Source of the DNA: a virus
Virus record (IMG/VR): IMGVR_UViG_3300025316_000391
Location: 1-29,575 of that record
Direction: 5' to 3' (one strand)
Length of the DNA stretch: 29,575 nt
Shown here: piece by piece, positions 5,320-29,575 of the stretch
Numbering within the stretch: position 1 is the stretch's first letter
How the letters are laid out: the number at the start of each line of letters is the position of its first letter
Made by a program: the position numbers and the translations under genes
The notes under the pieces: model-generated
What the model saw: the letters and a program-made list of their open reading frames with translations, nothing else
What the model was told of the DNA's origin: nothing
Databases searched by the model: none

Positions 5320-5323
5320 AGTT

Positions 5324-5355
5324 TTGCGCCCGTTGCCGGTCATCCGGTGAAGCGT
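5324..5355 (+). promoter_or_regulatory. Late-element octamer upstream of the terminase gene
   Basis: TTGCGCCC at 5324-5331 lies 45 bases before the terminase ATG. It is one of five such copies at comparable distance in the window (7606, 8055, 17681, 28621). A TAGGGT follows about 31 bases after the octamer start (5355-5360); two of the other copies have a TA(A/G)G sequence in the same place. Confidence 0.5.
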
Positions 5356-5368
5356 AGGGTGGCAGCCA

Positions 5369-7219
5369 ATGATTGCCGACGCGCTGGACATCCTTGAAAT
5401 CGAACCTGGACCGCCACCGCCTGAAGTGGCGAAGGAATTACAGTGGTTCCGCAACATGCTGGCCGGGAAGTCGGCGGATGAACTGATGGTGCTGGCGTTG
5501 CAGAGTCCCGCCGTCCACTTCGCAACATTCGTCACCATCCGGGACAAGGACAACCGGGAGATCAGACCGGAGCCGAACGTCCTGCAACTGCGGATGAGCA
5601 AGGCGTATGAGACGCTGCGACAGATGGGGGTGAAGGTGAGGATTGTTTGCGTGAAGCCGAGGCGGGCCGGGTGCAGCTCGTTCGCCGCTCATATTGTCTA
5701 TCACCACTCCCAACGGTTCCGCAGCGAGGGAATCACCATCAGCGACATCAAGGCGCACTCTCAGGAATTGATGGAGAAGGTCAGCGGGTATTCCAAGGTT
5801 GACCGCTTCCCGTGGGGACACCGGATCACCGGGGACACCGCCTATTCGCTGGTGTGGGACAATGGATCGAAATGGACAGTCGATACGGCGGAGAATCCCA
5901 ACGCCGGGGTTGGCGGCACCCGGCACCTGGGGCATTTCTCGGAAGTCGCGAAGTGGCCTCAAACGACTGTCAAGAACAGCGAAAAGACGATGGCGGCGGT
6001 GTTGCCGTCACTGTCCGGCAAGGAAACGGTTTGCATTGCCGAGTCCACCCCGGAAGGCGCTCAGGGATGGTTCTACGACACCTACTGCAACGCGGTGACG
6101 CTGGATCAGTTCATTGAAATGCACGCCAAGGGAATCTGTCCCGAAGAGCAATGGGTGAAGGTGTTCGCGGCATGGTGGGAGTTCACGGACAACAAGCGGA
6201 ATGAGCCGGTTTCCGCAGTCGAGATCAACCACTTCAAGGAGACTCTGACCGATGACGAGCGGGAAGGCATCGAGCTTTACGGCTGGTCATGGGAGCAAAT
6301 CGGCTGGCGCAGGGATACGATCCGAAACGTCTGCAACGGAGATTCTCGGGTGTTCAAGTTCTACTACCCGTCCGATGACGTGTCATGTTGGACCGCCAGC
6401 GGCAGCCCGCGCTTCGACATCCCGGCGATCCTCGACATGGAAGCAATCGCCAAGCGGTCAACCTTCGATACCGGATACCTCGTCACCCAGCCGTACAAGA
6501 GGGTTTCTTTCAGTCCCGTGCATGACGGAAGCGGGGAAATCCAGATTGCCGAGCATCCGATGGACGGTTTGCGCTACGTTGTGATAGGAGATCCGGCGAC
6601 CGGTGAAAGCCAGACTATCGGCGCGGACCCTGACAGGAATTCCGTGATGGTTCTCCGGGATGGGTATCACGATAGGGACATGGGGATTTGGAGGCCTGCC
6701 AAGCAGGTTGCGCGGGTGAAAAGCCCGTTTTACTCCGACAACGACATCATGGCCGGTCACATGGCCCGCTTGTCGAAATACTACGGCAACGCGCTTGTCG
6801 CGCTCGAAGTGAACGAGGGTCTTGGAGTTTTGGCCTATCTGAAAGACGCTGGTGTTCCGCTCTACAAGCGCAAACCGGAAAGCGCCCGCCTTGGAACGAT
6901 TGTTGAACAATACGGCTTCAAGCTCTCCAATGATGACCAGCGGCGGTATATCATCGACCGTCTGGCGTCGGCCATCCGCAGCCATGAAATAGAGGTCTTT
7001 AGCTTGGAGACCTGCAAGGAATTGAAGAACTTCGTGGTGAAGAGCAGCGGCAAGGCGGAAGCGGCCAACGGGTGTCACGATGACGATGTGATGTGTCTGG
7101 CGATGGGCTGGACCGTCCTTCCGTCTGCCAGCACGTTCCGGCTGATTAGACGCAAGGAGCACGATCCAAAGGACATGCGCAGTTGGCAGCGGGTCAAACA
7201 CATGGCCGACCTATTCTGA
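5369..7219 (+). CDS. terL: Terminase large subunit
   Basis: A 616-aa DNA-packaging motor. Residues 96-104, KPRRAGCSS, are the Arg-rich Walker A variant typical of large terminases. HFSEVAKW (189-196) gives the Walker B region with its catalytic Glu, and ESTPEG (225-230) fits the coupling motif. The C-terminal nuclease domain begins about residue 403, with Asp408 in VIGDPATGE, further acidic residues around LVALEVNEG, and the terminal metal cluster HDDD at 570-573. Both motor and nuclease motifs are intact, so the protein should be active. It hydrolyses ATP to drive DNA into the prohead and cuts concatemers. The start has no Shine-Dalgarno and follows the late octamer. Confidence 0.93.
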   Translation: MIADALDILEIEPGPPPPEVAKELQWFRNMLAGKSADELMVLALQSPAVHFATFVTIRDKDNREIRPEPNVLQLRMSKAYETLRQMGVKVRIVCVKPRRAGCSSFAAHIVYHHSQRFRSEGITISDIKAHSQELMEKVSGYSKVDRFPWGHRITGDTAYSLVWDNGSKWTVDTAENPNAGVGGTRHLGHFSEVAKWPQTTVKNSEKTMAAVLPSLSGKETVCIAESTPEGAQGWFYDTYCNAVTLDQFIEMHAKGICPEEQWVKVFAAWWEFTDNKRNEPVSAVEINHFKETLTDDEREGIELYGWSWEQIGWRRDTIRNVCNGDSRVFKFYYPSDDVSCWTASGSPRFDIPAILDMEAIAKRSTFDTGYLVTQPYKRVSFSPVHDGSGEIQIAEHPMDGLRYVVIGDPATGESQTIGADPDRNSVMVLRDGYHDRDMGIWRPAKQVARVKSPFYSDNDIMAGHMARLSKYYGNALVALEVNEGLGVLAYLKDAGVPLYKRKPESARLGTIVEQYGFKLSNDDQRRYIIDRLASAIRSHEIEVFSLETCKELKNFVVKSSGKAEAANGCHDDDVMCLAMGWTVLPSASTFRLIRRKEHDPKDMRSWQRVKHMADLF

Positions 7220-7253
7220 TTGACACCCGGCTGGATTCGACCATCATCCGGCC

Positions 7254-7619
7254 ATGAGTGAGGATCAAACCGGCAAAGTGGTGAGGTTTCCGAAGGCATC
7301 CGAGGCTCTGATTGACGTTGAGGCGTTCGCTTCCGATGAAATGCAACGACGGTTCAACGAAATGCGGGACAAGTTCATTGCGAAGTGGCAGGGGGAGGTT
7401 GAGAATGGAATCCAACGCGGCCTGAAACGGCTTGGAATCACGATGGAACAACTGGCTTCCGGGACTTTCGGGCAGTTCGTGATTGAAAATTGCCGCGACG
7501 GATCGACAAACTACGGGATCGAGTTGGCCGGGAATACCACCGTCATTTGCACGATGGCACCGATGTTCAGGAAGAATCCCGAAGACAACCCGAATTTCGT
7601 TGGAGTTGCGCCCGTATAA
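7254..7619 (+). CDS. Hypothetical phage protein
   Basis: A 121-aa protein without a recognised family. The N-terminal half is helical and charged (FASDEMQRRFNEMRDKF and a further amphipathic helix). The C-terminal half looks beta-rich, with NYGIELAGNTTVICTMAP. It follows the large terminase by 34 bases. TTGACA at 7220-7225 could be a -35 box, but no good -10 follows. Its last codons contain the late octamer serving the next gene. Confidence 0.6.
   Translation: MSEDQTGKVVRFPKASEALIDVEAFASDEMQRRFNEMRDKFIAKWQGEVENGIQRGLKRLGITMEQLASGTFGQFVIENCRDGSTNYGIELAGNTTVICTMAPMFRKNPEDNPNFVGVAPV
7606..7613 (+). promoter_or_regulatory. Late-element octamer inside the 3' end of the preceding gene
   Basis: TTGCGCCC is located 46 bases before ATG 7652 and lies within the last codons of the preceding gene. 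It is an exact copy of the octamers at 5324, 17681 and 28621. If it is a promoter it would drive the 61-aa gene and the following tRNA. Confidence 0.45.
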
Positions 7620-7651
7620 CCCGCCCTCGAATAGCCGAAAATCACCCCGCC

Positions 7652-7837
7652 ATGACAAAGCTCACCAAAATCTCACACCACCACGGGCCGATCCATACCG
7701 ATCACACCGTCAACTTCACATTTGAAGGCGACAAGCCAAAGGTCGTTCTGACTCTCACGATTCCCCGGAAATCCACGCCGGCGGCAACCGCTACCCTCAT
7801 CACGGCATTCGTGTCGAAGGTTTCGGCGGTGCCTTGA
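7652..7837 (+). CDS. Hypothetical 61-aa protein
   Basis: A short protein starting MTKLTKISHHHG. It has two or three likely beta strands (TVNFTFEG, KVVLTLTIPR) and a C-terminal helix (ATLITAFVSKV). No family is recognised. It ends nine bases before the tRNA gene, so the two could be in one transcript. Start chosen as the only ATG in the intergenic gap that gives a sensible protein. Confidence 0.55.
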   Translation: MTKLTKISHHHGPIHTDHTVNFTFEGDKPKVVLTLTIPRKSTPAATATLITAFVSKVSAVP

Positions 7838-7845
7838 ATTTCAAC

Positions 7846-7919
7846 CGCAGGTAAGACAATTGGTAAGTCCCGAGGCCCATACCCTCGTCATGCGAGTTCG
7901 ATTCCCGCACCTGCAACCA
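7846..7919 (+). tRNA. tRNA with anticodon CAT, initiator-like features
   Basis: The cloverleaf runs as follows. The acceptor is 7846-7852 with 7909-7915, of which six positions pair and C1 opposes A72. The D stem GAC/GTC (7855-7857, 7867-7869) gives A11-U24. The anticodon stem CGAGG/CCTCG surrounds loop CCCATAC (7876-7882). The T stem is GCGAG/CCCGC with one A-C mismatch, T loop TTCGATT. A73 and CCA are encoded. The C1-A72 mismatch and A11-U24 pair are hallmarks of bacterial initiator tRNA, but the three G-C pairs of the anticodon stem are only partly present (positions 30 and 31). A8 and C33 replace the nearly universal U8 and U33. It may be a phage initiator-type tRNA, a Met or Ile2 tRNA, or a decaying gene. 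Confidence 0.75.
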
Positions 7920-8054
7920 ATTTCCCCAATCCCTCGGGGTAACGGATAAGCCGTCAAGAGTCCGTAAAAGCGGGCGGTTCTATGGTTTTTCATCCCGCCG
8001 ATCAGGCTGGCCCGGCAGTCTCCGAATCACGGCCCGGTGCAATTTCCCCTCTTA

Positions 8055-8080
8055 ATGCGCCCCTAAGTTCACAGGGGCGC
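8055..8080 (+). promoter_or_regulatory. Late-element octamer variant within a hairpin
   Basis: ATGCGCCC (8055-8062) lies 45 bases before ATG 8100 and differs by one base from the other four late octamers. Here it is part of a perfect 8-bp inverted repeat, GCGCCCCT (8057-8064) with AGGGGCGC (8073-8080), loop 8 bases. The rest of 7920-8099 holds no gene I can support. Confidence 0.45.
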
Positions 8081-8099
8081 GGGTGTTCACATTCCCGGC

Positions 8100-11000
8100 A
8101 TGTCCACATGGCGCGATTTCAACGACCCGGAAGTCGATCAGTATTTCCAGCAAGCCAGACAGGGATTTGTCGGGGTTGATCCTCAGTCGCAGACGATGGC
8201 TCGGAGCACGTCGAATCCGAGGCTGGCGGCAGAAGGACAGCGGCAGCTTGCGCAGCAGGATCAAGCGAACCAGCAGAGGGTAGCGCAGGCCGCGCAGGAT
8301 CAAGCCAGACAGGCGGCGGAGACTCAGCGGGACAATCTGAGGCAGCAGGACGCTCAAAGCCGGATGATGGCGCAGGTGACGGCGCAGAAGGCCAAGCAGG
8401 CGGAAGCTGAAAGGTTGCGTCAGGTGCGGATGATGAAGGCGCAGGGAGTCAAAGGCGCGACCGATCCGATCACCGGCCATCAAAGCGTCGCCACCAACCC
8501 GGACGGCTCGCCTGAATACAAAACCGGAAAACTCCCCGGGACGGTCGGGGTGCAGACGCCGGAATCGGCCAACATGGATTTGACGAAGGCGATTGTTGGC
8601 GCTCCGACTGGCGACATTACGGGAGTCACCGGGGCGGAGAATGTTCAACCCGGACACGTTTACCGCAACCCATACGGGGAAACGAAAGCCGTGGTTGACA
8701 AGACCCAAACCGACCCGAAGACCGGGCAGATTTACACCGAAGAAAAAGACTCTTTCGGCGCTCCGGTGCGAGTTGTGACCGGCCATGACCCGCGCTGGCA
8801 GGAAAAGAACGACCTGAAACAAGACCAGTTGCGGGCGGATTTCGGAAGGAATCAGATCATTCAGGCGATCAACAATCATGCGACGGCATGGACTCCGGCA
8901 GCGAAGGCGTTCAAGGAAGCCAAGAAGAATCTGGAAGCGTTCAAGGAGGATGAGTGGAAGATGAATCCAGATTTAGGCATTTTGGAGCGTCAAAATCTTC
9001 TTACTGGAAAAACGGAGCGCATGAACGACCCGGAAGCCAAGGTCGCGAGAGACAAGGCGCTCGCCAAGGCGAAGCAGGACTACGCCATCGCCAAGAAAGC
9101 CTACGACCCGGAGCTTGCGAAGCATGATGCGCTGGTCAAAGCGCACAACGCGGCCTATGCTCAGCAGCTTTCCTTGCGGGCGCGGCGAATCAAGCTGGAG
9201 CTGAATCTCCCGGAAGATGATGCAGGAACCGCTGAAATCCTAGCCGGGGCGGAGATGGGGCAAGAATCTGGTATTGATCCGGTGGTTCACGGCTACATCA
9301 ACGGCACGGATGACGAGGAATCGGACGGCGAGGGCGCTCAATTACCGAAATCGGATGGAAAAGTATCAAATGATACTTTGCCGCAATCACCGCAACCAAA
9401 CACTGCGGATGGCACAAAACCGAAACAGGATGGGAAGCCTGTGCCAGAATCCCAGGAATCTTCAGACTCTGGCACAAATCCGCCGGCTCAGGCTGAACCC
9501 CCCGTGCCAAAATCGCTTGCCGCGATGAACGACCAGGACAAGGTGGCGGCAATCTCGCAATCCATCGGGGGACTAAAGAATCCTGAGAAGATCAAGATCA
9601 ACACGTCGGAATCAGGGATTTCCGAAGTCACGCGAGGCCCAGCCGGTGATGACCAAATCGGATTCCTGACCCATGACGGAAAAGGAAACCCGTTCTTCCA
9701 CCTTGTGAACTCCAAGGCGGGGATGGAGATAGCCCGCAACGTCGTTCCGTCAACCGATGGGATTCCGCTCTACCTGCAACGCGCTCCTGGAGTCGATTCG
9801 CAAGGCCCGCTCAAGGACGCTGAATTCGTCGCTTCCGTGTTCGACGCTCTCGGACAGTCTAAAAACAAGGACGATTCGGAAGCTCTGAATCAGGAAATCA
9901 TCAAACTTGGTGCCAGTCCTGAACAGGTTGCCGAAAAGGTTCGCAAGGGTGAATTGTCCATCCAATCTGGCGAGGCGCTGGTGAAGGGGCTTTACGGCCT
10001 GAGTCTCAAACCGGAAGATCCAGGCGACCCGAAAGTCTTTCACAAGTGGTTTGTCGAGCAACCGGCGGAAGTCCAAAAGGCATGGAAGAATGCCGCAACC
10101 ATCGAGGATAGCGAGGCCATCAAGGCGGATTTCGTCAAGCAGTGGGCGAAGGACAACGCTTGGAAGCCGACCGTCGATCAGGGGTTCTTGGATCGCGAAT
10201 GGAAGCGGATGATGCCGGGACGACCTGCGGAGGGTCAGCTTGAAACCGCCGGTCGCGGATTGGTGATGAATACCATCCCGGCAATCGGGACGGTCATTGG
10301 TGCGGCAATAGGCGGGTTGCTAGGTATTCCAAGCGGACCAGGAGAATTTGCAGCCGTTACCGCTGGAGGAATGGCCGGCGCGACCGCCGCCGCGTCACTT
10401 CAAAAGCGCGTGTTCTCAGCCGTCTTTGGTCCCGGAGCGATGAAGGAAATGGAACTTCAGCAAGCGGCGAATGCCAAAAAGAATCCCGGTTCCGAAATGC
10501 TCGGAACGATGGCACCGCTTTTGATTTCATGCCTTGGGAATCCGGTTGGCGGATCGGTGAAGGTTGAAGGGAAATTGCTTGGTAAGGCGCTCACGGAATC
10601 CGGCAAAGCCGCCATCGCGGCTGGCAAAGCCGCTCCGAAACTTGAAGCCGTCGCTCAGAACTTCGCAACCGGGGTACGTGTCGGCGGAGCTGAAAAGCTC
10701 ACCGATTGGGTGAACGACAAAAAGAACCCGGACGGCTCACCGATCAACGTCCTTTCGGTGATGAACTCCATGGCGCGTGGCGGGGTGACTTTCGGATCGC
10801 TTGGCTTCGCGCCAGAGGCAGTTTCCATGTTGCCAATCGCCAAGAACATTCTGGTCAAGGCCGGGGTGCGTGGAACGTCCGACGCGGCCCTGATGACACT
10901 TTCCGGCGTCATGTATGACTCCATCACCAAGGGCGAGTTGCCGGACTGGAAGAAGGCGGCAGATGAATTCAAGGGTAGTATCACCCCGTTTGTGTTGCAA

Positions 11001-12416
11001 AACCTCGTCATGGGCGCTCTTCACCGTTCCGTTACCGGCATGCCGGAACCGGGAAAACCAGGCGAGAAACCACCGCCGGACGCTACCGGAGAAGCGCCAG
11101 CTCCGAAGCCGATCATTCCTACCGATGGGACGGGCGGAAAAGCCGCCGAACCGCCGCCAGTCGAAGGCGAGTCTCCGACACCTCCAACCGATCAACCTCC
11201 TATCCCTGAACCACCGAAGGAAACCGGAAAACAAATCGTTGGCCGGAAGATGATCGTCCGGTCACTCATGAAGCAAGGGGTTTCTGAGGAACACGCCAAT
11301 GAATTCGCGAACCGCTGGAACGGCGATCTATCGAAATACGACAACGTGGAAGGATTCACACAGGCGGCAAGGGATGCGTTCAAGGAAATCGGCGGAGTTT
11401 TCCCGAACGAGGTTGAAACCAAGCCGGAAGATTTCACTTCATGGAAGAATCAACGTGACGGCATAACCGATGAACAGGCCAGAACCAACGCGGAGAATAC
11501 CCGCCTGCAAAACGAGCGGTTGAAGAACGAGGCGCACGACCAGAACGCCAAGGCGCTTGGAGAATTCAAGAAGCCAACACCCAATGAGCCGAACAATCAA
11601 ACGACCCCGACCGAACCCCCGGCGGTGGCGGAGGTGCCAGTGTCAGACGTGCCAGTTGGGGAGACACCACCCGCGAGTGTTGAGCCAGTTGAAGGAAGTG
11701 CTGCGCCGGTTGGGGATTCCGAAGCGAAAGCCGAAGCTCCGGTAACGAAGCCGGAAATGAAACAGGCGCAGTCTCGAAAAGAAATCATCGAAGCAAAGAA
11801 GCAAACGGCCCGCGACATCATGGCCAAGAATGACGCGGACCGGATGGCTAAAGACGCTAAGGATCGCAACAAGTTTCCCGGTAGGGATTACTCGGTTTCG
11901 CCGAACTCAATAGCCATCCAGCCGCGTGGTCTCGACACTGAACCGCTGTCCGATAAAGTATTCACCTACCCGTATGACGGGACGGCGGAGGATGCAGCCA
12001 AGGTTGGAGCGAAGGCTTTCAAGGAACTTAATGAGCGGTTTCCAGAGATGAGTCAGCGCGAAAGCGTGTTCATTGGATCGGGCGAGGATGGGATGACACG
12101 GCACCGCATGGAAATGGATTTCGTCCATGACAAAGTAAAGGTGACAACGATAGGCAAGGAGCAGGGAAAAGTCTCCGCGCCGGAGACTCCTGCTGCTGAC
12201 GAGACTCCGAAGGAAACGAAAGCGGAAACGAATCCCGCAGAATCCCAGACCGGCAACCCAGAGCTTGACGCCCACATTGAAACCATCACCAAGGGCAAGT
12301 CAAAGGCGGCGCGTGAGGTTAGAAACAGACTTTCCAAAGCTGATTACGAATCAGACGCTTTGAGCGACCACAAGGAAACCAAGGCGGAATACCTCCGCCG
12401 CATCATTTGCGGATAA
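8100..12416 (+). CDS. Giant virion or ejection-type protein (large polyvalent protein-like), 1438 aa
   Basis: A 1438-aa protein. The N-terminus (about 1-125) is Gln/Ala-rich and strongly coiled-coil, opening with WRDFNDPEVDQYF. Residues about 240-360 are charged helices. About 400-475 is a Pro/Ser-rich linker. A Gly/Ala-rich hydrophobic stretch (about 718-770, including IGTVIGAAIGGLLGIPSG) could insert in a membrane. Further Pro-rich linkers lie near 985-1035 and 1160-1220, and a small alpha/beta domain near 1260-1360. This multi-domain pattern resembles large polyvalent or ejection proteins of podoviruses that enter the host with DNA. No enzymatic motif is clear. It starts a late unit after the octamer and is followed three bases later by the ATP-grasp gene. 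Confidence 0.6.
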   Translation: MSTWRDFNDPEVDQYFQQARQGFVGVDPQSQTMARSTSNPRLAAEGQRQLAQQDQANQQRVAQAAQDQARQAAETQRDNLRQQDAQSRMMAQVTAQKAKQAEAERLRQVRMMKAQGVKGATDPITGHQSVATNPDGSPEYKTGKLPGTVGVQTPESANMDLTKAIVGAPTGDITGVTGAENVQPGHVYRNPYGETKAVVDKTQTDPKTGQIYTEEKDSFGAPVRVVTGHDPRWQEKNDLKQDQLRADFGRNQIIQAINNHATAWTPAAKAFKEAKKNLEAFKEDEWKMNPDLGILERQNLLTGKTERMNDPEAKVARDKALAKAKQDYAIAKKAYDPELAKHDALVKAHNAAYAQQLSLRARRIKLELNLPEDDAGTAEILAGAEMGQESGIDPVVHGYINGTDDEESDGEGAQLPKSDGKVSNDTLPQSPQPNTADGTKPKQDGKPVPESQESSDSGTNPPAQAEPPVPKSLAAMNDQDKVAAISQSIGGLKNPEKIKINTSESGISEVTRGPAGDDQIGFLTHDGKGNPFFHLVNSKAGMEIARNVVPSTDGIPLYLQRAPGVDSQGPLKDAEFVASVFDALGQSKNKDDSEALNQEIIKLGASPEQVAEKVRKGELSIQSGEALVKGLYGLSLKPEDPGDPKVFHKWFVEQPAEVQKAWKNAATIEDSEAIKADFVKQWAKDNAWKPTVDQGFLDREWKRMMPGRPAEGQLETAGRGLVMNTIPAIGTVIGAAIGGLLGIPSGPGEFAAVTAGGMAGATAAASLQKRVFSAVFGPGAMKEMELQQAANAKKNPGSEMLGTMAPLLISCLGNPVGGSVKVEGKLLGKALTESGKAAIAAGKAAPKLEAVAQNFATGVRVGGAEKLTDWVNDKKNPDGSPINVLSVMNSMARGGVTFGSLGFAPEAVSMLPIAKNILVKAGVRGTSDAALMTLSGVMYDSITKGELPDWKKAADEFKGSITPFVLQNLVMGALHRSVTGMPEPGKPGEKPPPDATGEAPAPKPIIPTDGTGGKAAEPPPVEGESPTPPTDQPPIPEPPKETGKQIVGRKMIVRSLMKQGVSEEHANEFANRWNGDLSKYDNVEGFTQAARDAFKEIGGVFPNEVETKPEDFTSWKNQRDGITDEQARTNAENTRLQNERLKNEAHDQNAKALGEFKKPTPNEPNNQTTPTEPPAVAEVPVSDVPVGETPPASVEPVEGSAAPVGDSEAKAEAPVTKPEMKQAQSRKEIIEAKKQTARDIMAKNDADRMAKDAKDRNKFPGRDYSVSPNSIAIQPRGLDTEPLSDKVFTYPYDGTAEDAAKVGAKAFKELNERFPEMSQRESVFIGSGEDGMTRHRMEMDFVHDKVKVTTIGKEQGKVSAPETPAADETPKETKAETNPAESQTGNPELDAHIETITKGKSKAAREVRNRLSKADYESDALSDHKETKAEYLRRIICG

Positions 12417-12419
12417 CCT

Positions 12420-13688
12420 ATGAAAAAGACCAAAGACGTAACCTGCATGGTCGTGGACACCGGAATCTTCGTGGATGCCGCCGTGATGCTGGCAAAGAGC
12501 ATGAAGAAGGTCTATTACTGCAATCCCGGCTGGGTGAGCGGGACACCCCGGCAGAATGACGCTGAGATCGGCAGAGGTCTGGAAGGCATCGAGGTTGTGA
12601 GTGACGTTCACGATCACTTTGACGATGTGGATTTGTATGTGTTCTTCGACATATACTTTGGAACCCTGCAAGTCTGGCTGGAAGGCCAAGGCAAGGCCGT
12701 GTGGGGCAGCCGGATGGCCGAAGAACTGGAGATCGACCGGATCAAGTGCCGCGAGCAGATGAAGGAAAAGGGTTTGCCGGTGGCACCCTACCAAGTCATC
12801 ACCGGCATGGAGAAGCTGCGGGCATTCCTCAAAACCCACGGTGACAAATACGTCAAGACGAACAAATGGCGCGGCACCATGGAAACCCTCTACGCGAAGG
12901 ATTACCGCTACATCAAGCCGCGTCTGGACAAGCTGGAATACGATCTTGGTCCGTTCTCTCAATCAACCAGGTTCCTTGTCGAGGACGCATTGCCCGACCG
13001 GATCGAGCTTGGAATCGACACATGGTGCATCGACGGGAAGTTCCCGGATTGTTCCCTCACCGGGATCGAAATCAAGGATTGCGCCTACGTTGGGAGGATG
13101 ATGGAGCGTGAGAACATCCCCGAGCCGGTGCGGAGATTCACCGAAACATTCACGCCTGACTTCAAGAAGGCTGGTTATCGCGGATTCATCAGCGACGAAA
13201 CACGAATCGGCAAGGACAAGGTTCCCTACATGATCGACGCGACCATGAGGATGCCATCGCCTCCCGGAGAGCTTTACAGCTTCATGTTCACCAACTTCGC
13301 GGACATCGTTTGGTATGGAGCCAACGGCAAGGTCATCGAGCCGGAAGAGCGCGCCGAGTTCGGAGTTCAAGCGGTCATTCACTCGTCATGGGCGATGGAG
13401 AACTTCCAGCCGATCATCATCCCTGAGAAGTTCCGCGATCAGGTGCGGATTCACAATGCCATCCGCATCGGCGAGGAATACTACGTGCTACCCCAGGACT
13501 CGCCCGCTGAGATCGTCGGCAGCGTAGTAGCCTGCGGCGACTCCTACGAGGCGTGTTTCGATGAGATCAAGGCCATCACCAAGGAAATCGACGGCTACCA
13601 GATCGAGGTTGACGTTGAGGCGTTCGACAAGGCCGAGGAGCAGCTTGCGAAAGCTGAGAAGATGGGATTCAACTTTCTGACAAAATGA
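12420..13688 (+). CDS. ATP-grasp ligase, PurD-like
   Basis: A 422-aa protein resembling the ATP-grasp part of glycinamide ribonucleotide synthetase. VWGSRMAEELEIDRIKCRE (94-112) starts the grasp domain, followed by EKGLPVAPYQVI (116-127). Lys146 in KYVKTN fits the ATP-contacting Lys. RFLVEDALP (184-192) aligns with the hinge-region strand. GYRGFISDETRI then IDATMRM (272-278) give the late metal/phosphate-binding region, with Asp273 and Arg277, where many relatives have Glu/Asn/Arg. ATP-grasp enzymes join a carboxylate to an amine through an acyl phosphate; the substrate here is unknown. The gene sits between two giant virion-type genes and shares a four-base overlap with the next gene, which suggests a late role such as modifying a virion protein. 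Confidence 0.7.
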   Translation: MKKTKDVTCMVVDTGIFVDAAVMLAKSMKKVYYCNPGWVSGTPRQNDAEIGRGLEGIEVVSDVHDHFDDVDLYVFFDIYFGTLQVWLEGQGKAVWGSRMAEELEIDRIKCREQMKEKGLPVAPYQVITGMEKLRAFLKTHGDKYVKTNKWRGTMETLYAKDYRYIKPRLDKLEYDLGPFSQSTRFLVEDALPDRIELGIDTWCIDGKFPDCSLTGIEIKDCAYVGRMMERENIPEPVRRFTETFTPDFKKAGYRGFISDETRIGKDKVPYMIDATMRMPSPPGELYSFMFTNFADIVWYGANGKVIEPEERAEFGVQAVIHSSWAMENFQPIIIPEKFRDQVRIHNAIRIGEEYYVLPQDSPAEIVGSVVACGDSYEACFDEIKAITKEIDGYQIEVDVEAFDKAEEQLAKAEKMGFNFLTK

Positions 13689-13840
13689 GCTTCGACCGCA
13701 TACCATTCGATGAATCCGACCCGCAAGACCCGCTGGACCGGCTTGGGACATGGGAAGCGGCAAGGTCGGGAGTTTCGGTTGAACCCGACTCCGCGCCTGC
13801 TTTCGATGAAGATGAAGACGAAGATGATGACGGCCTTTGA
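13685..13840 (+). CDS. Hyperacidic 51-aa protein
   Basis: A 51-aa frame beginning MSFDRIPFDESDPQ and ending in an uninterrupted acidic run (DEDEDEDDD, then GL). The start overlaps the ATP-grasp stop (ATGA, 13685-13688), and the next good ATG follows 14 bases after its stop, so it fills the gap neatly. No family is recognised. Possible roles are a protein chaperone or DNA mimic, but this rests on charge alone. Confidence 0.6.
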   Translation: MSFDRIPFDESDPQDPLDRLGTWEAARSGVSVEPDSAPAFDEDEDEDDDGL

Positions 13841-13854
13841 ACCACCCTACCGCT

Positions 13855-16800
13855 ATGCCATTCCCCTGCCCTAATAAGAATCACGATGACTTCAAAGCAC
13901 TTGTCGAAGCCTTTGGAGGCGGAGAAAACGCGGACAAGAAAACCAATGATCTTGCCAAGGAGCGAGCGAGTCTCTCGTATTTCCGCAATGGTGACGTGAT
14001 TCCGAAGGTTGAAGATGCGAAAAGATTGATTGAGTGGAAAGATTCTTCCTCGCCCGTCACTGATTCCAGCCAAGAAACCAATCCAGCGGGTGAAGTCCCG
14101 CCAAAAACAGAAACAACGAAACCAACACCAAATGAGCAAGAAAGCAAGCAAGTCGAAGCCAAGCAGCAAGCCAAACCCGTTCGCAAAGGGAGCGCCCCCG
14201 AAAGGGATGCCGCCGATGCCGAAGGGCAAGGGAAAGGCGTGCTGAAGCCGGAGGATGCCGGGGGTGAAAATCCCCCGGCTTCCGAATTCCTTGCGGAAGA
14301 TGGGACACCCACTGAACGATTCAAGGAGCTTGCCAACGCCGCTAAACCGGATTCCGATCTTTTCAAGGTGAAGAGTGGGGAGAAAGGCAAACCCTCGATT
14401 GGTGTTTATCGGAGGCTTTCAGCCAAAAGCGAACTTTCCCCGGAAGAGAAAACGGACCTTGCTGATGCAACTAAGGCGCTTGCCGAAAAGATGGATTCCA
14501 TGAACGAATCAGGAATCACGGTCCCGCTTGGACCCGGAGCAAAGACCGCCAGAGAAGGCGAGTATTCAGCTGGACGCCACCTGATAGACCAGTTGAAAAT
14601 CAGGCCAAAGACCGGTAAGAAGGATGGTAAGCCGTGGTATGTCGATATTGCTCAGGCATGGGCAAAGGGAAAGGATGCCGTTCGCGGCGCGTGGGCGATG
14701 GCTCAAACCGTGGCACCGAGGGCGAAGGAGATGCTTGAAGGAATCAATTCCATTGATGATGCCAAGCGTGCCGTTCTTGAATTCCACCAAAAGGAGCAAA
14801 CGGCTGCCGGACTACATACCAGAGTTGGTCAGGAAATGGCGAAACGCTTCAAGAGCGAAACCACAAGAGGGGCAGCGCATATTTGGTCAGATACTCCGGG
14901 AACCCGTGAAGAGAAGATCGCGGCCATCAATGATACTTTGGCAAACCTTCCGAAAGATACTAAACCAGAAATCAGAAAGGTTTTGGAAGAAGCGGCCAAG
15001 GGTGGCAAGGATGTTGTCGATCTTTCTGAAATGATGGATGATTTCTGGAGCGAGGCGGGAGACAAGGGACTTGACGCGGATGTTTTGCGGCAGCTTCGCG
15101 AGGACTACGCGACTCACGTTTGGAAAAACGCGGACAATATGCCAAAGCAAATGTCCGGGATGATGAAGAACGGCATGGTGAATGAGTCTTTCGACTACGC
15201 CAAACAACGGAAGATTCCAACCATCCTTGAAGGAATCAAGCAGGGCAAAGAACCATTCCTTGACCCGGCAGTCATAATTCCCCGATACGGATACGAACTT
15301 GACAAGGCGATTGCCAGCCGGGAACTCATTGAGAAACTTTCTGGCCTCGATGCATCGGACGGATCGCCATTGCTGGCAGCAACCGGAACCCGGCAAGTCA
15401 TTGAATCAAACAAGTTCGCCGTAGTGAAGGAGGATGGCGGCAGGGCGCGGAAGACGTTCGACACAAAAGAGGAAGCGGAAGCCGCATTGAAGCCAGGCGA
15501 AAAGGTTGAATCACGGGACTCCACCACGGTCCTGATTCGCCCGCAGGCAAAATATGCAGACATGCAGGGTTATCGTCCCGTGGATCATTCATCAATGCGG
15601 CGGTGGAAATGGGCCGACACGGACCCGGAAACCGGCAAGACGGTCATATATGAGGGGGAACTTTACGTTCACCCGGAAGCATACCAGCGGCTTGCGAACA
15701 TGATGGACAAATACCGTCTGACACCTTCGATGATGATGCGCACCGCCTTGAATGTGAGTTCCGAACTGAAAGGGATGAAGCTGGGTTTGCCGTCGCTATT
15801 TCACACGGTTCATGTCGGAACCCATGACGTTTTCCATTGGGGCAACGTGTTCAAGCACATGGCTACCGAAATCGACCCGGAAAGCCCGGAGGTTCAGGAA
15901 GCGTTGGGTTATGGAATTCAGGTGTTTACCCCACCCGGACAAATATCGGCGGCAGCGGAAGGAATCGGATCGGGGCTGCTGGTTAACAAGATTCCCCTCT
16001 TGGGACCATTTTCAAAGGCGTGGACGGAGTTTCAATTCCAAAAGCTGATTCCACGTATGACCTACGGGACATTTGTGAATGCCTTTGCCCGCGCCAAGTG
16101 GATGAGGGATAATCCGGGAGACTTCGCCCGCGCCAACCTTCCGAAATTCATGACCGACAAACTCGGCCTGTTCAAACGATACACCGATGAGGAAATCGGC
16201 CATCGGATAGCGGACATGACGAACAACGCTTTCGGTGAACTCAATCCGCTGATTTTGGGGAAGAACGGCAGAAATCCAGCAGTGGACAGGATCTTGCGCT
16301 TGGCATTCCTCGCCCCGAAGTTCGGTGAAGGACGCCTGCGATTCGTCGCCAAGGCGCTTACCCGCACCGGCCATGAAGAGCGGTTTGCGCTCGCGACCAT
16401 GATGCTAACCCTCTACACGATGGCGCGAGTGTCGAATCAGTTGTCTCACGGCGACCCGGAAAACGACTGGAAACACGCATTCATGGTCAAGATCGGTGAC
16501 AAGTGGTGGTCCATGAGAAGCGTGATTGGTGACACAACCCACGCGCTTTCAGATTTCCGTGGATTCATTGAGAATCGGCTCAATCCAATGACGACAGCGC
16601 CAATGCTGCGATTCTGGAAGGGAACGGACACGCGGGGCCGCAAACTTAGTGACCAAGAGCAAATCGCGGAGGATTTCAAGGGACTGGCTCCTATTCAGGT
16701 TTCCGGTATGTTCCGCGATGACAAAACCGTGTGGGATTCGTTCTTTCAATCCATGGGTGCCAGCGGACTCAGGGAATCTCCAATGCAGGATATTCACCGG

Positions 16801-17178: not shown

Positions 17179-17322
17179 CCCTCGCTTGAAAATAGGTTAT
17201 CGCCTGCAAGAAATGAGTGGTCTGCCCCTCGAACGAAGACGATGGACGTTCCAGATATTTTTTCAATTCTCCTGATTTCGGCAGTATCAAAGGTAGGGTC
17301 AACCCCTTGGATGGTTTTGGAT

Positions 17323-17661: not shown

Positions 17662-17680
17662 TGCAACCGAAATCTTGTAA

Positions 17681-17716
17681 TTGCGCCCCTAAATCCGGCA
17701 ATCTGATGCCCCTAAG
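17681..17716 (+). promoter_or_regulatory. Late-element octamer upstream of the portal gene
   Basis: TTGCGCCC at 17681-17688 lies 44 bases before the portal ATG. GCCCCTAA occurs twice here (17685-17692 and 17708-17715), 23 bases apart, so the second copy (TAAGAG, 17713-17718) occupies the place of the TAGGGT/TAGGTT seen downstream of two other octamers. CTGATG (17703-17708) is shared with the copy at 28621. Confidence 0.5.
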
Positions 17717-17724
17717 AGTCCCGC

Positions 17725-19872
17725 ATGATTATTCATGACCCTCGCCCGACCGCCAGGCAGCGCCAGCTTGCCGAAATGGGCGCTCAGGTGAAAACCATGA
17801 AGAACATGGGGGGAGAAAAGACCGTGTTGGGGCGGAAAATGAACGATCACCAGACGAAATGGCTTCTCCAATACCTCACCGACCGATGGACAACGCTTCA
17901 CCGGAATCTCAGTTCTCAGCGGGCCGCGTGGGAGATTCAAGAGCGGGAATCGCGGGGCAACTACTCCGACCGGAAGAAACGGCTGGAAACCGATGTTTCG
18001 GACGCCTTACGGAGCATTTTTGAGCATCAGAACGAATCCCTCGGGGTTGCGAGCGGGTTTTCTGACTTCGCCTTCGCCCAGGCCAAGGGTGACATTTTCG
18101 GCACCAAACCATGGCTTGCGGCAACCCCGCAAGGGGTAAAGGACAACGATCTTGCCGACATCCTGCCGAAACATTGCCAGTGGAAATTCGACCAGTCCGA
18201 CCTTCAGGAAACCCTCACGGACGGGATTCTGACCGCCTGCGACATCGGCACGGCGTTCGTCAAGATCGGGTGGTTGAAGGACATCGAGCAATCGACCACG
18301 GTTGATTTTGTGGCGCATTCCAAGTCTAAGAATGCCCCGCTTGAGGGGATTGGCGGTGACATGGTGCGGGATCATTCCGAACTCCCGGAGGATGTTGACG
18401 GGGCGGATGTCGAGTGGCGGCAGATGGAGTTGCCGGATATTTCCGTCATTTACGACAACCTCACGGCCAGCCTGCTTGACTTCCGGGACGTGGCTTTTGA
18501 TACGCTCGCGCCGGAATTGAACCTGCGGCACACTGAATTCTTCCACCGCTTCCGAATCGGCCTATTGGATGCCGTCAGCCTCTACAAGCTGGACGAAAAG
18601 GAACACATTGAACTCCGGTCGCTGATTCTCACCGGGACCGACCAACTCCGCGCCGACCGGGAAGAGGAATCGAGCAACCAGACGGCGGAGCTTTCCGCCT
18701 TGGAGGCTAACCCTCAGATTGAACTCATCGAAGGATTTACGAGGGTTGACCCGTTCCAAAAGAACAACCCGGTGCGGATTCACGCCGTGTTCGCCCCTTC
18801 GATCAACCTGATGCTGCGGGCCGAATACCTCAAGGAAGACACTCCGGGCGGGATGCTTCCGGTGTTCGCCGTGCGGTGTTTCAAGGTTCCGAACCGGATC
18901 ATTGGTCGCGGCTATCTGGAGAAATACCACGATGCCAACATGACGGTTGACACCCATTTCAACACCGCGACCTACATCAAGCGGCAATCCTGCTTCCCGA
19001 TCAAAGGCATGCATGTTGATGCCGTGGAGGATGAGCTTGACCAGGAGAATCTGATTCTTGACCCGAACAAGACCTACGTTTTGAAGCCGGACAAGACGAT
19101 GGCGGATTTTCTCAGTTTCGCTCAAATCCCGGAAAATTCCAAGCTAGGTCTTGAGCTTCTTGACCGGGCGCACCAGATGGCGCAGATGCACTCAGGCATC
19201 ACGTCCGCCGCGCAGGGCGAGATGAAGGGCGTTCCAAGTTCCAACACCGCCACCGGAACGAATGAGATCATCAGCCGGGGCGCGCAGTTGTTGAAGGTTC
19301 CGATCAGCCAGATGGCTTCCGACCTGACGAATGCGGTGGAATTCTCCGTGTTTCTCGTCTATGCCAACCAGACCGACGATGAGACGTTCACATGGGGCGA
19401 GGGCAAGGACGCGGAGGTGAAGACCATCAATGCCGGGGACGTGAAGGGACTACGCCTGAATGTCAGCCTCTCCCTAACGCTGAGCCAGAATCAGACCAAG
19501 CTCAAGAATGCCCAAGGAGCGATTCAGATCATGGCGCAGTATGTCCAACTTCCTGAGAACGAAAAGACCGCGCAACGGCGGATGTTCATCGAAGCCGTGA
19601 AGGCGCTTGAATTCAACGACGCGGACAAGATCGTCCGGGAGGCGGTGACGGATGTTGCCGGCATCATGGCGATGCTGCCGCCCGAGTTGCAGCCATTGTT
19701 CCAGCAATTCCTTGCCACCATGCAGGCGCAGCAGGGTCAGGGAATGCCGCCAGACGGGCAACAACCCCCGATGGCACCGGACGGCACCCAACCCTCCCCG
19801 GAATCCGCCAGCAGCCAGCCTGACCCCAACGCGCCCGACCCCGCTACCTTTCCAGAACCGCCACAGCAATAA
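17725..19872 (+). CDS. Portal protein
   Basis: A 715-aa protein with the layout of podovirus-type portals. The N-terminal helices (about 35-125) carry a conserved-looking FGTKPWLAA, and a wing region follows. The central block VFAVRCFKVPNRIIGRGYLE, with the KYHDANMTVDTHFN segment, resembles the stem-adjacent portal core, and SGITSAAQGEMKG is followed by helices. The last about 45 residues are Pro/Gln-rich and disordered. The portal forms the dodecameric DNA channel and docks the terminase. It is separated from terminase by more than 10 kb of internal-protein genes, which is unusual. It follows the late octamer and has no Shine-Dalgarno. Confidence 0.8.
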   Translation: MIIHDPRPTARQRQLAEMGAQVKTMKNMGGEKTVLGRKMNDHQTKWLLQYLTDRWTTLHRNLSSQRAAWEIQERESRGNYSDRKKRLETDVSDALRSIFEHQNESLGVASGFSDFAFAQAKGDIFGTKPWLAATPQGVKDNDLADILPKHCQWKFDQSDLQETLTDGILTACDIGTAFVKIGWLKDIEQSTTVDFVAHSKSKNAPLEGIGGDMVRDHSELPEDVDGADVEWRQMELPDISVIYDNLTASLLDFRDVAFDTLAPELNLRHTEFFHRFRIGLLDAVSLYKLDEKEHIELRSLILTGTDQLRADREEESSNQTAELSALEANPQIELIEGFTRVDPFQKNNPVRIHAVFAPSINLMLRAEYLKEDTPGGMLPVFAVRCFKVPNRIIGRGYLEKYHDANMTVDTHFNTATYIKRQSCFPIKGMHVDAVEDELDQENLILDPNKTYVLKPDKTMADFLSFAQIPENSKLGLELLDRAHQMAQMHSGITSAAQGEMKGVPSSNTATGTNEIISRGAQLLKVPISQMASDLTNAVEFSVFLVYANQTDDETFTWGEGKDAEVKTINAGDVKGLRLNVSLSLTLSQNQTKLKNAQGAIQIMAQYVQLPENEKTAQRRMFIEAVKALEFNDADKIVREAVTDVAGIMAMLPPELQPLFQQFLATMQAQQGQGMPPDGQQPPMAPDGTQPSPESASSQPDPNAPDPATFPEPPQQ

Positions 19873-19890
19873 TTCCAACCGCAAACCATC

Positions 19891-21660
19891 ATGAGCAACA
19901 CGCCAGCCGATCAAACCCTTCCGAAGCCCGCCTACCGTGTTTCAGGCCAAACCACAACCGAACAGCCGAACATTTTCAGGAAGCTCTCCAAGCTCTTCAA
20001 GCCGCACCACTCCCAAGAAGAGGAATGCTGCACCGTTTCCCGCTACGCGCTGCGGCTGATTGACAGGATCACGGGGGACGCTTACACCGCCGATGAACTG
20101 ACCGCAGAACTGCAACAGGCAACCTACGACGGAGAGCCGGTCAACCATGTGGCGGCCATCGCCGCCGCAGGCACGGCAAACGGGGTGACGTGGACCAATA
20201 AGACGGCTGGCGTGGCTGGCAACAGCAAGGTTCTCAACATCCTCGACCCGGGCGCATCGGCCCACACTCCGCTGTCATTCGCGATTGACGGCGACAACAT
20301 CAACGTCACGCCGGTGACGGACGCCGGGGCAACAGCGACGGCGACAAGCGGATCGGGCGGCAACGCGGTAACGTGGGCATGGCCTGTTGCCGGGACGGTT
20401 GGCAACGGCAAGACGATCAATTTCTATGACCCGCAGGTGGACTCCTACGCCGGCCGGTGTGAGGTCGTGGGAAGTGTTTACAACGTCTATCTGCCGAGTA
20501 CTGCGGGAGCGGCGGGAGTGTGCGCGTTCGATGTCGGCGCGGGCGGGACCGGCCACAAGATCACCAGCACCCTCACGACCCCTGGATCGGCTGGCAACGC
20601 CAGGCGGATCAATGTCGCGCTGCCAACAAACACCAACCCGTTCGGGGCTACTCTTCTGAAGCCATCTCAGGCGGCTGCGACAGGGACGTTCTCCGCGCCG
20701 AATTACAATCTGCTGCTCGCCACCGGCCCGGGAACGGTCGGGGTGCTGACAGTGACCGAAGCGACCAACGGATCGTTCAAGGTGGAGACGACGGCGGCCT
20801 ACGCCGGGACGTGGGGCAACGGACATGTGACGTGTATCCTGGACAACCCGAATCTGCCGTCCCAGACGCTCAACACGGTTGTGACCAACGCGGGAGGGAA
20901 CATCGCGATTGTGGTATATCTTCCGACCAACACGTCGGCCTTGCTGACAGCGGCGACGGACACGGATGTCGTGGCGAGCATCAACGCGGCGCTGACTGCG
21001 GCAAGCCTCAGCACATATCTGTTGGCAACAAAACTCAGCACGGCGAAGACATTCACGATCAACACGCTGGTTCAGACGATGGCGCTTGGTGTCAACGCGG
21101 TGGCGCTGACCACGGCGGCCAACCAGGCGACTGCGATAGCGGCGCTGATCCATACGCTGGATGACACGCCGACATCGGTTGCCGGAAGCGGGACCGATCT
21201 GGTTGCCGTTGGCGGGCCTTACTCGTTCACCGGCGGCGGTGCCGGATACGCGGCCTACCAGGCGGCATCGGCGATTGTGGGGATGGCCAACTTCCCGTTT
21301 GTGGTGAGCGCGAACGGCACGCGTGTCCCGGCATTCGGGGACCAGGCGGCTGACGGCTCGACCGGCGGTGTCGGTTACGCGGCCACCAGCACGGCGGCGC
21401 AGATCGCGGCGCTGACCGGCTTCCCGCTGGCGGCGACGGGCACCACCTCGAACGTGCCAGCCATCGGCAACGCCATTGTGACCTTTACCAGCGGCGCTGA
21501 CGCTATCCCCGGAACACCCGCACACCTCGGACGGGAGGCTATCTACTTGGCAACCCCCGGAGATGCGAGTACCGCAAGCGTCTGGAAAGCCATGAAGGAA
21601 GATCCGACCACCACGCAGGACGGTTGGATTAAAACCTTAACTTATTATGCATTCTTATAA
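19891..21660 (+). CDS. Repeat-rich beta structural protein of the virion
   Basis: A 589-aa protein, low in charge and rich in Ala, Thr, Gly and Val. The first about 75 residues are a distinct helical domain with a CC pair (EEECCTVSRYALRLIDRIT). After that, degenerate repeats follow with an AG-x-x-GN core and a hydrophobic strand: TAGVAGNSKVLNI, VAGTVGNGKTINF, TPGSAGNARRINV, YAGTWGNGHVTCI. The repeats are irregularly spaced and suggest stacked small beta domains. The C-terminus (about 550-589) is a mixed domain ending DGWIKTLTYYAFL. Placed between portal and tail fibre, it is probably a tail, decoration or adaptor-associated protein. It does not look like an HK97-fold capsid. Confidence 0.55.
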   Translation: MSNTPADQTLPKPAYRVSGQTTTEQPNIFRKLSKLFKPHHSQEEECCTVSRYALRLIDRITGDAYTADELTAELQQATYDGEPVNHVAAIAAAGTANGVTWTNKTAGVAGNSKVLNILDPGASAHTPLSFAIDGDNINVTPVTDAGATATATSGSGGNAVTWAWPVAGTVGNGKTINFYDPQVDSYAGRCEVVGSVYNVYLPSTAGAAGVCAFDVGAGGTGHKITSTLTTPGSAGNARRINVALPTNTNPFGATLLKPSQAAATGTFSAPNYNLLLATGPGTVGVLTVTEATNGSFKVETTAAYAGTWGNGHVTCILDNPNLPSQTLNTVVTNAGGNIAIVVYLPTNTSALLTAATDTDVVASINAALTAASLSTYLLATKLSTAKTFTINTLVQTMALGVNAVALTTAANQATAIAALIHTLDDTPTSVAGSGTDLVAVGGPYSFTGGGAGYAAYQAASAIVGMANFPFVVSANGTRVPAFGDQAADGSTGGVGYAATSTAAQIAALTGFPLAATGTTSNVPAIGNAIVTFTSGADAIPGTPAHLGREAIYLATPGDASTASVWKAMKEDPTTTQDGWIKTLTYYAFL

Positions 21661-21666
21661 CCCTCC

Positions 21667-22089: not shown

Positions 22090-22091
22090 GC

Positions 22092-25100: not shown

Positions 25101-25105
25101 CCGCC

Positions 25106-28617: not shown

Positions 28618-28620
28618 CGG

Positions 28621-28658
28621 TTGCGCCCCTTCATGGCCTCGCCTGATGGTCGCTAGGT
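28621..28658 (+). promoter_or_regulatory. Late-element octamer upstream of the scaffold-like gene
   Basis: TTGCGCCC at 28621-28628 lies 47 bases before ATG 28668. CTGATG (28643-28648) and TAGGTT (28654-28659) follow, in the same order as near the portal copy. It starts four bases after the amidase stop. Confidence 0.5.
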
Positions 28659-28667
28659 TCCGTGCCG

Positions 28668-29575
28668 ATGACCGACACCAACCCTAGCGTGCCAGGCGGA
28701 CAGCCGACACCACAGCCAGTTGAAACACCCGCCGCAGGCGCACAGCCGCAGGGTGATCTGAGAACCGCTATCAGCGGAATGGATGCCGAGGCAGCCGCCT
28801 CGATCATGGATTCCCTTGAAGCGGGCGACACCGTTACGATTCCCCAGCCAGAGGTTACGCCTCCGACGCCAACAACTCCCCCGGCGAGTGAAGAACCGCC
28901 AGCCGAGACGCCGCCGGAACCCGGAACCCCTCCCGAGGAAGTCCCGCCAACGGAAATCCAAGAACCAACCACGCCGAAAGGCCCGCCCAACAGACTGTCA
29001 ACCCGCGCCTTGGAGGATGCGGACAAGCAGAAGTTGGCTGATGCGCTCGATCTCGTCAGACAGGGACAAGCCCCGGATATTGCGACAGCGATCCTACAGC
29101 TTACCCCGCAGGCGGCACCCGCCGCCCCTGCCGAAACGACGCCGGCCACTCCGCCGACTCCCGTTCAACAGCCGGAAGCACCTGCCGAGGTAGCAGCCAT
29201 AAAAGCCAAGATCGCCAGCCTGCGCGAACAGCGCACTAAGGCGAATGAGGAATATCTGGCACCCGAGGTTGACCGCCTGACAACCGAGATTGAGGAATTG
29301 AACCTTGATCTTGTCCGCTCTGAAATTGCCGCCCGCGAATTGCAATCCCGGCGTCAATCCTACCAGTCCGGGTATGTTGCGGCAGTCGATGCGGTTGAGG
29401 CGATGTATCCAGAACTCAATGAGGAAAGCGAGGTTTTCAACCCCGACTTTTCGGAAATGCTCACCGACCGGATTGAAGCGGCGAAAAGCCGCAAAGACCC
29501 GAGGTTGGCAGATCCTAACTTCATTGTCGAATTCGCGGAACACACGGCCAAGGTTCTTGGAATCCAGAAGGTGAA
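28668..29575 (+). CDS. Scaffold-like protein, partial at the window edge
   Basis: An open frame of at least 302 codons with no stop before the edge. The N-terminal about 115 residues are Pro/Glu/Thr-rich and acidic, probably disordered. A short helix (QKLADALDLVRQG) comes next. Residues about 175-235 are a long charged coiled coil (AAIKAKIASLREQR, VDRLTTEIEELNLDL). The rest (SGYVAAVDAVEAMYPELNEES onwards, with NPDFSEMLTDRIEAAKS) is typical of phage head-scaffold C-terminal parts. Scaffolds direct capsid assembly and usually precede the major capsid gene, which would be expected just past the window. There is no protease motif in the part visible. Confidence 0.6.
   Translation, partial: MTDTNPSVPGGQPTPQPVETPAAGAQPQGDLRTAISGMDAEAAASIMDSLEAGDTVTIPQPEVTPPTPTTPPASEEPPAETPPEPGTPPEEVPPTEIQEPTTPKGPPNRLSTRALEDADKQKLADALDLVRQGQAPDIATAILQLTPQAAPAAPAETTPATPPTPVQQPEAPAEVAAIKAKIASLREQRTKANEEYLAPEVDRLTTEIEELNLDLVRSEIAARELQSRRQSYQSGYVAAVDAVEAMYPELNEESEVFNPDFSEMLTDRIEAAKSRKDPRLADPNFIVEFAEHTAKVLGIQKV

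What the first reader, a model, noticed from the sequence alone, without database searches (positions are those of the whole stretch)
5324..28668. Recurring octamer TTGCGCCC 44-47 bases before five late start codons
Copies are at 5324 (terminase), 7606 (61-aa gene), 8055 (one mismatch, giant protein), 17681 (portal) and 28621 (scaffold-like). Distances from octamer start to ATG are 45, 46, 45, 44 and 47. Three copies are followed about 30 bases later by TAGGGT, TAAGAG or TAGGTT. Four of the five sites are in intergenic gaps and one is in the 3' end of a gene. Genes inside overlapping clusters lack it. A fixed-distance element at unit starts suggests a phage-specific late promoter or a shared 5' leader element. 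It does not match the sigma-70 spacing or the sigma-54 consensus.
Basis: seen in the sequence. Interest (0 to 1): 0.7.

Follow-up and report, generated by a model that had tools for sequence, protein, structure and literature searches.

The report
Late promoter of Verrucomicrobia phages
A short DNA signal repeated in front of the virus-assembly genes of an uncharacterised group of phages of Verrucomicrobia bacteria looks like an activator-controlled late promoter that places the RNA start at, or within a few bases of, the first codon of most genes it drives.

Summary
The octamer and its fixed distance to the start codon are real. Upstream of 18 window gene starts, no other 8-mer is shared at a fixed position by as many genes; 0 of 1000 shuffles reach it. 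Scans of public viral contigs and genomes found the same element in front of the same late genes (terminase, giant internal virion protein, portal, scaffold) in phages whose proteins are only 30-60% identical, and in prophage genes of Haloferula sp. (Verrucomicrobiota). Sites cluster 44-47 nt before ATG (17 sites; other 4-nt bins hold 0-4).

The element is bipartite: NTSCGCCCSTW, then a sigma70-type -10 hexamer (xAxxxT) 31-33 nt from the octamer start (16 of 17 sites; 0-3 of 17 at other offsets), 6-8 nt before ATG at most sites. At small-terminase genes the octamer-to-hexamer spacing stays while the ATG moves, so this is a DNA promoter, not an RNA leader.

Best reading: an activator box at -44 to -37 (class II position), host sigma70-type RNA polymerase, and leaderless or nearly leaderless late mRNAs in hosts that rarely use Shine-Dalgarno. 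The activator was not identified, and nothing has been tested experimentally.

The parts
5324..5369 (+). Late promoter of the terminase large subunit gene: box TTGCGCCCGT 5324-5333, -10-like TAGGGT 5355-5360, ATG 5369 (predicted transcript start at or within ~2 nt of the ATG)
   Evidence: same box, spacing (45) and hexamer TACCCT at the 57%-identical Haloferula terminase gene
7606..7652 (+). Late promoter of the 61-aa gene: box TTGCGCCCGT 7606-7615, -10-like GAAAAT 7637-7642, ATG 7652; the box lies in the 3' end of ORF 7254-7619
8055..8100 (+). Late promoter of the giant internal virion protein gene: box ATGCGCCCCT 8055-8064, -10-like CACATT 8088-8093, ATG 8100
   Evidence: orthologous genes in G003, G011, G012 and L099 carry the element at 43-46 nt
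17681..17725 (+). Late promoter of the portal gene: box TTGCGCCCCT 17681-17690, -10-like TAAGAG(T) 17713-17719, ATG 17725
   Evidence: portal genes of G009, G010, G011, G012 and G004 carry the element at 44-45 nt
28621..28668 (+). Late promoter of the scaffold-like gene: box TTGCGCCCCT 28621-28630, -10-like TAGGTT 28654-28659, ATG 28668
   Evidence: conserved in near relative L094/L013 (TAGGGT, 47 nt) and in G005, G009, G010, G012
5369..7219 (+). terminase large subunit
   Evidence: PHROG phrog_2, E 1.8e-17
8100..12416 (+). N-terminal part of a giant internal virion protein
   Evidence: similar to the 5541-, 3698- and 5517-aa proteins of G003, G011 and G012
17725..19872 (+). portal protein
   Evidence: phrog_1216, phrog_156; 40-49% identity to G004, G009-G012
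28668..29573 (+). scaffold-like protein, directly upstream of the major capsid gene in the relative L013
   Evidence: the name rests on position only, no family hit

Best explanation
The recurring element is the late promoter of a lineage of tailed phages of Verrucomicrobiota. It has an upstream box (consensus NTSCGCCCSTW, TTGCGCCCGT in most copies), 21-23 bp of unconserved spacer, and a -10 hexamer of sigma70 type (xAxxxT) 31-33 bp from the box start. Shown: this anatomy, its conservation in divergent phages, its restriction to late (packaging, capsid, virion) genes, and the 6-8 bp between hexamer and start codon at most genes. Inferred: host RNA polymerase with its main sigma factor starts about 7 bp after the hexamer, at or within about 2 nt of the A of the ATG, giving leaderless or nearly leaderless mRNAs. 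This explains the near-constant 44-47 nt, and fits hosts that make little use of Shine-Dalgarno. Also inferred: the box, at about -44 to -37 where a good -35 hexamer is missing, is bound by a phage-encoded activator that contacts sigma or alpha (class II geometry) and switches late genes on.
For: Positional significance in the window (0 of 1000 shuffles). Same element before orthologous late genes in divergent phages and the Haloferula prophage. ATG distances of box matches peak sharply: 17 at 44-47 nt, 0-4 per other 4-nt bin. Box columns carry 1.2-2.0 bits, flanks mostly below 0.3 bits. xAxxxT at offset 31-33 in 16 of 17 sites, 0-3 of 17 elsewhere; 0 of 2000 shuffles after allowing for the search over windows. 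Small-terminase genes keep the octamer-to--10 spacing (TATAAAAT in G012; TAGAAT in G003) although ATG is 77-80 nt from the octamer. Extended boxes are phage-specific and repeated within a phage (TTGCGCCCGTTTCTCTAG three times in G009; TTGCGCCCGTATTTC three times in G012), as expected if a phage protein coevolves with its sites. Absent as a positioned signal from 154 Haloferula genes. TAnnnT about 12 bp before start codons marks leaderless genes in bacteria (PMC3160421); some Verrucomicrobia, Akkermansia among them, are SD-scarce (PMC10783764); class II activators bind near -40 (PMC4287176).
Against: No transcript start has been mapped. No activator was found: the unannotated gene families shared by G009, G011 and G012 have no recognisable DNA-binding domain except a CxC...CxH (SWIM-like) pattern in one, and the models of two were unusable (pLDDT 39-41). 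Some hexamers are weak (CACATT, CACACT, ATACCC). A few sites have 4-36 nt leaders rather than none. The box shows no dyad, unlike Mu Mor/C sites. Only a few records carry three or more sites, and related phages are not independent samples.
Confidence: 0.75

Rival explanations
1. Promoter of a phage-encoded RNA polymerase (single-subunit T7/N4 type or a virion polymerase within the giant protein): the box is the recognition sequence, transcription starts about 18 nt downstream, and the mRNA has a ~27-nt leader.
For: Phage-specific 15-18-nt extended boxes (TTGCGCCCGTTTCTCTAG in G009) resemble the long invariant promoters of such polymerases. These phages carry a very large injected-type protein of 3700-5500 aa.
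Against: It does not explain the xAxxxT hexamer at 31-33 (16 of 17 sites) or the near-constant distance to ATG. No RNA_pol family (PF00940) match in 8 records, though the control genomes were silent too, so this is weak; no polymerase domain in the parts of two giant proteins scanned.
Confidence: 0.12
2. Shared 5' leader (RNA) element: a protein- or ribosome-binding sequence or hairpin that controls translation of late genes at a fixed distance from the start codon.
For: Fixed distance to ATG; some sites can form a hairpin with the box (window giant gene, G011 sites, G012 scaffold); these genes lack Shine-Dalgarno sequences.
Against: Folding z-scores range from -2.9 to +2.2 with no common structure. 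At small-terminase genes the box keeps its spacing to the -10 hexamer, not to ATG. A hexamer with conserved A at position 2 and T at position 6 is a DNA (sigma) signature.
Confidence: 0.06
3. The box is the -35-like element of a phage-encoded or alternative host sigma factor with an unusually long spacer (about 24 bp between box and -10).
For: Two-block architecture with fixed spacing; a weak sigma-70 region 4-like match in the G011 giant protein (E 0.003, below cut-off).
Against: Known sigma70-family spacers are about 16-18 bp (general knowledge); no convincing sigma factor seen among the proteins scanned; the -10 block looks like that of the main sigma.
Confidence: 0.05
4. Chance repetition of a GC-rich word.
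For: Raw octamer count in the window is unremarkable.
Against: Position test and conservation across divergent relatives.
Confidence: 0.01

Closest known systems
Phage Mu middle and late promoters (activators Mor and C)
   Same: Phage promoters with a -10 hexamer, no good -35, and an activator site near -40; Mor's site is centred at -43.5 (PMC4287176). Here the box spans about -44 to -37.
   Different: Mor/C sites have dyad symmetry; this box has none. No Mor/C homologue was recognised among the proteins scanned. Here the predicted start lies on or very near the start codon.
P2/P4 late promoters (Ogr/Delta) and T4 middle promoters (MotA), from general knowledge
   Same: A phage-encoded activator recognises a short box upstream of a sigma70 -10 to drive a gene class in divergent phages.
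   Different: Different sequence; Ogr boxes are centred at -55 and are palindromic, the MotA box at -30; neither was tested here as a homologue.
Leaderless (TA-led) genes of bacteria
   Same: TAnnnT-type -10 about 12 bp before the start codon (PMC3160421).
   Different: Those are chromosomal genes of Actinobacteria, Deinococci and others without this activator box; here it is a coordinated phage late class.
AR9/phiKZ late promoters (phage multisubunit RNA polymerase)
   Same: A short consensus before most late genes.
   Different: AR9's motif AACA-N6-TA/G ends at the transcript start and leaders are 26-491 nt (PMC5312081); here the -10 is of sigma70 type and leaders are about 0-36 nt.

Membership tests
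Activator-dependent (class II) phage late promoter | -10 hexamer of sigma70 type at fixed spacing | tested here: met
   xAxxxT at offset 31-33 in 16 of 17 sites; 0 of 2000 shuffles
Activator-dependent (class II) phage late promoter | Conserved upstream box near -40 in place of a good -35 | tested here: met
   NTSCGCCCSTW at about -44 to -34 in 24 aligned sites; of the consensus sigma70 promoters found in the part of the window scanned (4500-20500), none lies at the sites
Activator-dependent (class II) phage late promoter | Restricted to late genes of the phage, not general in host | tested here: met
   Sites with start codons precede packaging, portal, scaffold, giant and other late-module genes; no positioned excess in 154 Haloferula genes; in 388 Verrucomicrobiota genomes 71 matches (my count from the list) vs 51 for the reversed pattern, with one clear prophage hit
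Activator-dependent (class II) phage late promoter | A phage-encoded activator binds the box and is required | not testable with these tools
   No activator identified; needs experiment
Mu Mor/C-type promoter | Dyad-symmetric binding element | tested here: not met
   Columns upstream of the box carry 0.01-0.3 bits and no inverted half-site is conserved
Leaderless late genes | -10 about 12 bp before the start codon, no Shine-Dalgarno | tested here: met
   Hexamer score peaks at -16 to -11 from ATG; no SD-like sequence evident in the aligned leaders
Leaderless late genes | mRNA 5' end at the start codon | not testable with these tools
   No transcript data available
T7-like RNA polymerase promoter | Phage encodes a single-subunit RNA polymerase | tested here: inconclusive
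   No PF00940 match in 8 records, but the control genomes were also silent and records may be incomplete

The most novel reading that the evidence does not exclude
A lineage-wide phage late-gene switch in Verrucomicrobiota, in which a previously undescribed activator box at -44 drives a coordinated class of leaderless or near-leaderless late mRNAs, so that the promoter is locked at a near-fixed distance from the start codon.
Probability: 0.55. Interest if true: 0.65.

Novelty: new variant of a known kind. Interest (0 to 1): 0.55.

Why it matters
I found no described regulatory signal for this phage lineage, and few phages of Verrucomicrobiota are described. The element gives a predicted late regulon, exact transcript starts and a host species with a draft genome (Haloferula sp. 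BvORR071) in which to test them. If late structural genes are translated from leaderless mRNAs, it would be a clear case of a phage adapting its promoters to a host that makes little use of Shine-Dalgarno. The box can also be used to call late units and link metagenomic fragments of this lineage.

Tried and rejected
Chance repetition: rejected by the position test and by relatives. RNA leader or hairpin: rejected by folding and by the small-terminase sites. Terminator or known RNA family: the only Rfam hit is a tRNA at 1506-1578; the terminator scan is at shuffle level. Host signal: octamer 16 vs reversed control 16 in 324 kb of Haloferula, no positioned excess; the best extra hit in a Verrucomicrobiota genome survey precedes an iron-sulfur protein gene and is taken as chance. 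Phage RNA polymerase: no PF00940 hit, control silent. Activator search: shared gene families of G009, G011 and G012 are helicase, RecU, RecT, SSB, exonucleases and three unannotated families; structure models of two had pLDDT 39-41 and were not searched. The terminase, scaffold, giant and portal proteins as single-sequence viral-contig queries found at most one near relative; alignments were needed. Relatives cannot be drawn for a virus record. G011's small terminase has only a doubtful box.

Full report
OBSERVATION. The count alone is unimpressive: 5 exact copies on both strands against 2.2 +/- 1.5 expected. Position is the signal. For 18 gene starts of the window, TTGCGCCC is the only 8-mer shared at a fixed position by 4 genes (TGCGCCC by 5). 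In 1000 dinucleotide shuffles of the same upstream regions the best 8-mer was shared by at most 3 genes, and that once. The copy on the minus strand at 174 has neither a start codon nor a -10-like hexamer at the right place.

RELATIVES. The record is a viral contig with no close isolate: tblastn of the terminase in 50,697 phage records gave only matches of about 28% identity or less, and the portal none. A near relative (IMGVR_UViG_3300032562_001469; L008/L013/L094) has a 91%-identical scaffold-like protein and keeps the leader TTGCGCCCCT...CTAGGGT...ATG at 47 nt. Profile-guided scans gave more distant kin: contigs G003, G004, G005, G009, G010, G011 and G012 (G005 is recognised by its scaffold and capsid genes only; where present, terminases or portals are 40-61% identical to the window's), plus Haloferula sp. 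BvORR071 (Verrucomicrobiota), whose terminase gene is 57% identical. Other terminase kin lie in Verrucomicrobia MAGs, and one in a contig binned as Hyphomonadaceae. Hosts other than Haloferula are therefore inferred.

THE ELEMENT IN RELATIVES. Exact octamers precede terL in Haloferula (45 nt) and G011 (44 nt, GTG start), the portal in G009, G011 and G012 (45 nt), the scaffold gene in G009 and G012 (45, 46), the giant gene in G012 (44), and a 508-aa gene in G009 (50). Variants precede the giant gene in G003, G011 and L099, the scaffold gene in G005, G010 and G004, and the portal in G010 and G004. Over all records, matches to [ATC][TC][GC]CGCCC[GC]T have 17 open ATGs at 44-47 nt and 0-4 in every other 4-nt bin from 12 to 99; control words show no such peak. 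Within a phage the box is longer and identical: TTGCGCCCGTTTCTCTAG three times in G009, TTGCGCCCGTATTTC three times in G012.

ANATOMY. Aligned on the octamer, the core carries 1.2-2.0 bits per position from the second base to the last C, then S and T; the 12 bases upstream carry 0.01-0.3 bits and the spacer is mostly below 0.3. A second block appears 31-33 nt from the octamer start: a hexamer with A at position 2 and T at position 6, the two most conserved positions of the sigma70 -10. It is present in 16 of 17 regex-defined, non-duplicate sites against 0-3 of 17 at control offsets. The mean hexamer score is 2.60 against 1.32 +/- 0.16 in shuffles, 0 of 2000 even after allowing for the search over windows. 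The hexamer lies 6-8 nt before ATG at most sites.

PROMOTER, NOT LEADER. A scan with the two-part model found further sites upstream of small-terminase genes: G012 2879 (-10 TATAAAAT), G003 10151 (TAGAAT) and Haloferula L270 8964 minus (TACGGT). In G012 and G003 the ATG is 77-80 nt from the octamer, yet the octamer-to-hexamer distance is unchanged. Other G011 and G012 sites have ATG at 57-68 nt. So the fixed relation is between box and -10; the start codon follows because most mRNAs have almost no leader. Folding of octamer-to-ATG RNA gives z-scores from -2.9 to +2.2 without a shared structure.

MECHANISM (inferred). With the usual distance from -10 to start, RNA begins at or within about 2 nt of the ATG of most of these genes. 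In bacteria TAnnnT about 12 bp before the start codon marks leaderless genes (PMC3160421). Some Verrucomicrobia, Akkermansia among them, are listed as SD-scarce (PMC10783764); in 154 Haloferula genes SD-like words show no peak before ATG, with the caveat that starts were called simply as the first ATG. The box then spans about -44 to -37, 8-9 bp upstream of a normal -35, where class II activators bind and touch sigma (PMC4287176). The phage-specific extension of the box suggests a phage-encoded partner, and the box is not a positioned signal in the host. The activator is unknown. G009, G011 and G012 share three unannotated families besides replication and recombination genes, one with a CxC...CxH pattern (in G009 only its end is present, at the contig border); domain searches found nothing for the members scanned, and the two models made were too poor to use.

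ALTERNATIVES. A phage RNA polymerase promoter remains possible because of the long invariant boxes, but it does not account for the sigma70-like hexamer or the near-fixed ATG distance; the PF00940 search was negative with a silent control. A new sigma factor would need a spacer far outside the usual range.

NOVELTY. No paper found in the limited searches describes this motif or these phages. Activator-driven phage late promoters are a known kind; this is a new, lineage-wide variant with an undyadic box and apparently leaderless late mRNAs.

Noticed in passing
window 8100-17178: The giant internal virion protein, 3698-5541 aa in one frame in G011, G012 and G003, is here followed by separate ORFs: a 1438-aa part, a 422-aa ORF without family hits, and a 1113-aa ORF.
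   Followed up: partly
window 1506-1578 (+): A tRNA gene (Rfam RF00005, 69.8 bits) between a replication-initiator-like gene and a minus-strand ORF.
   Followed up: no
G012 (L192/L201-L203), G011 (L191/L198-L199): Giant proteins of 5517 and 3698 aa; the G011 one carries an InPase-type domain (PF18823), DarB-like and minor-head-like regions, and a weak sigma-70 region 4-like match.
   Followed up: partly
L270 8378-8964, L269 8214-10037, L221 2647-2928 and 12980-14743 (Haloferula sp. BvORR071): Pieces of a related prophage (small and large terminase, portal fragment, giant protein) in two contigs of a species with a draft genome; terS and terL both carry the element.
   Followed up: partly
G012 2923-2960 and G003 10195-10230: The small-terminase leaders of two phages share a GGTG..AACCGTC stretch, possibly a separate leader signal.
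   Followed up: no
window, most late genes: Late genes inside clusters have no Shine-Dalgarno sequence (starts such as CCTCCATG, CCATCATG, CAATCATG), whereas at least one early-side gene (3769) has AGGAGG.
   Followed up: no
L013 15052-16410 (-): Relatives carry a gene matching phrog_2045 and a radical-SAM mobile pair protein A model (below its cut-off), next to an HNH endonuclease.
   Followed up: no
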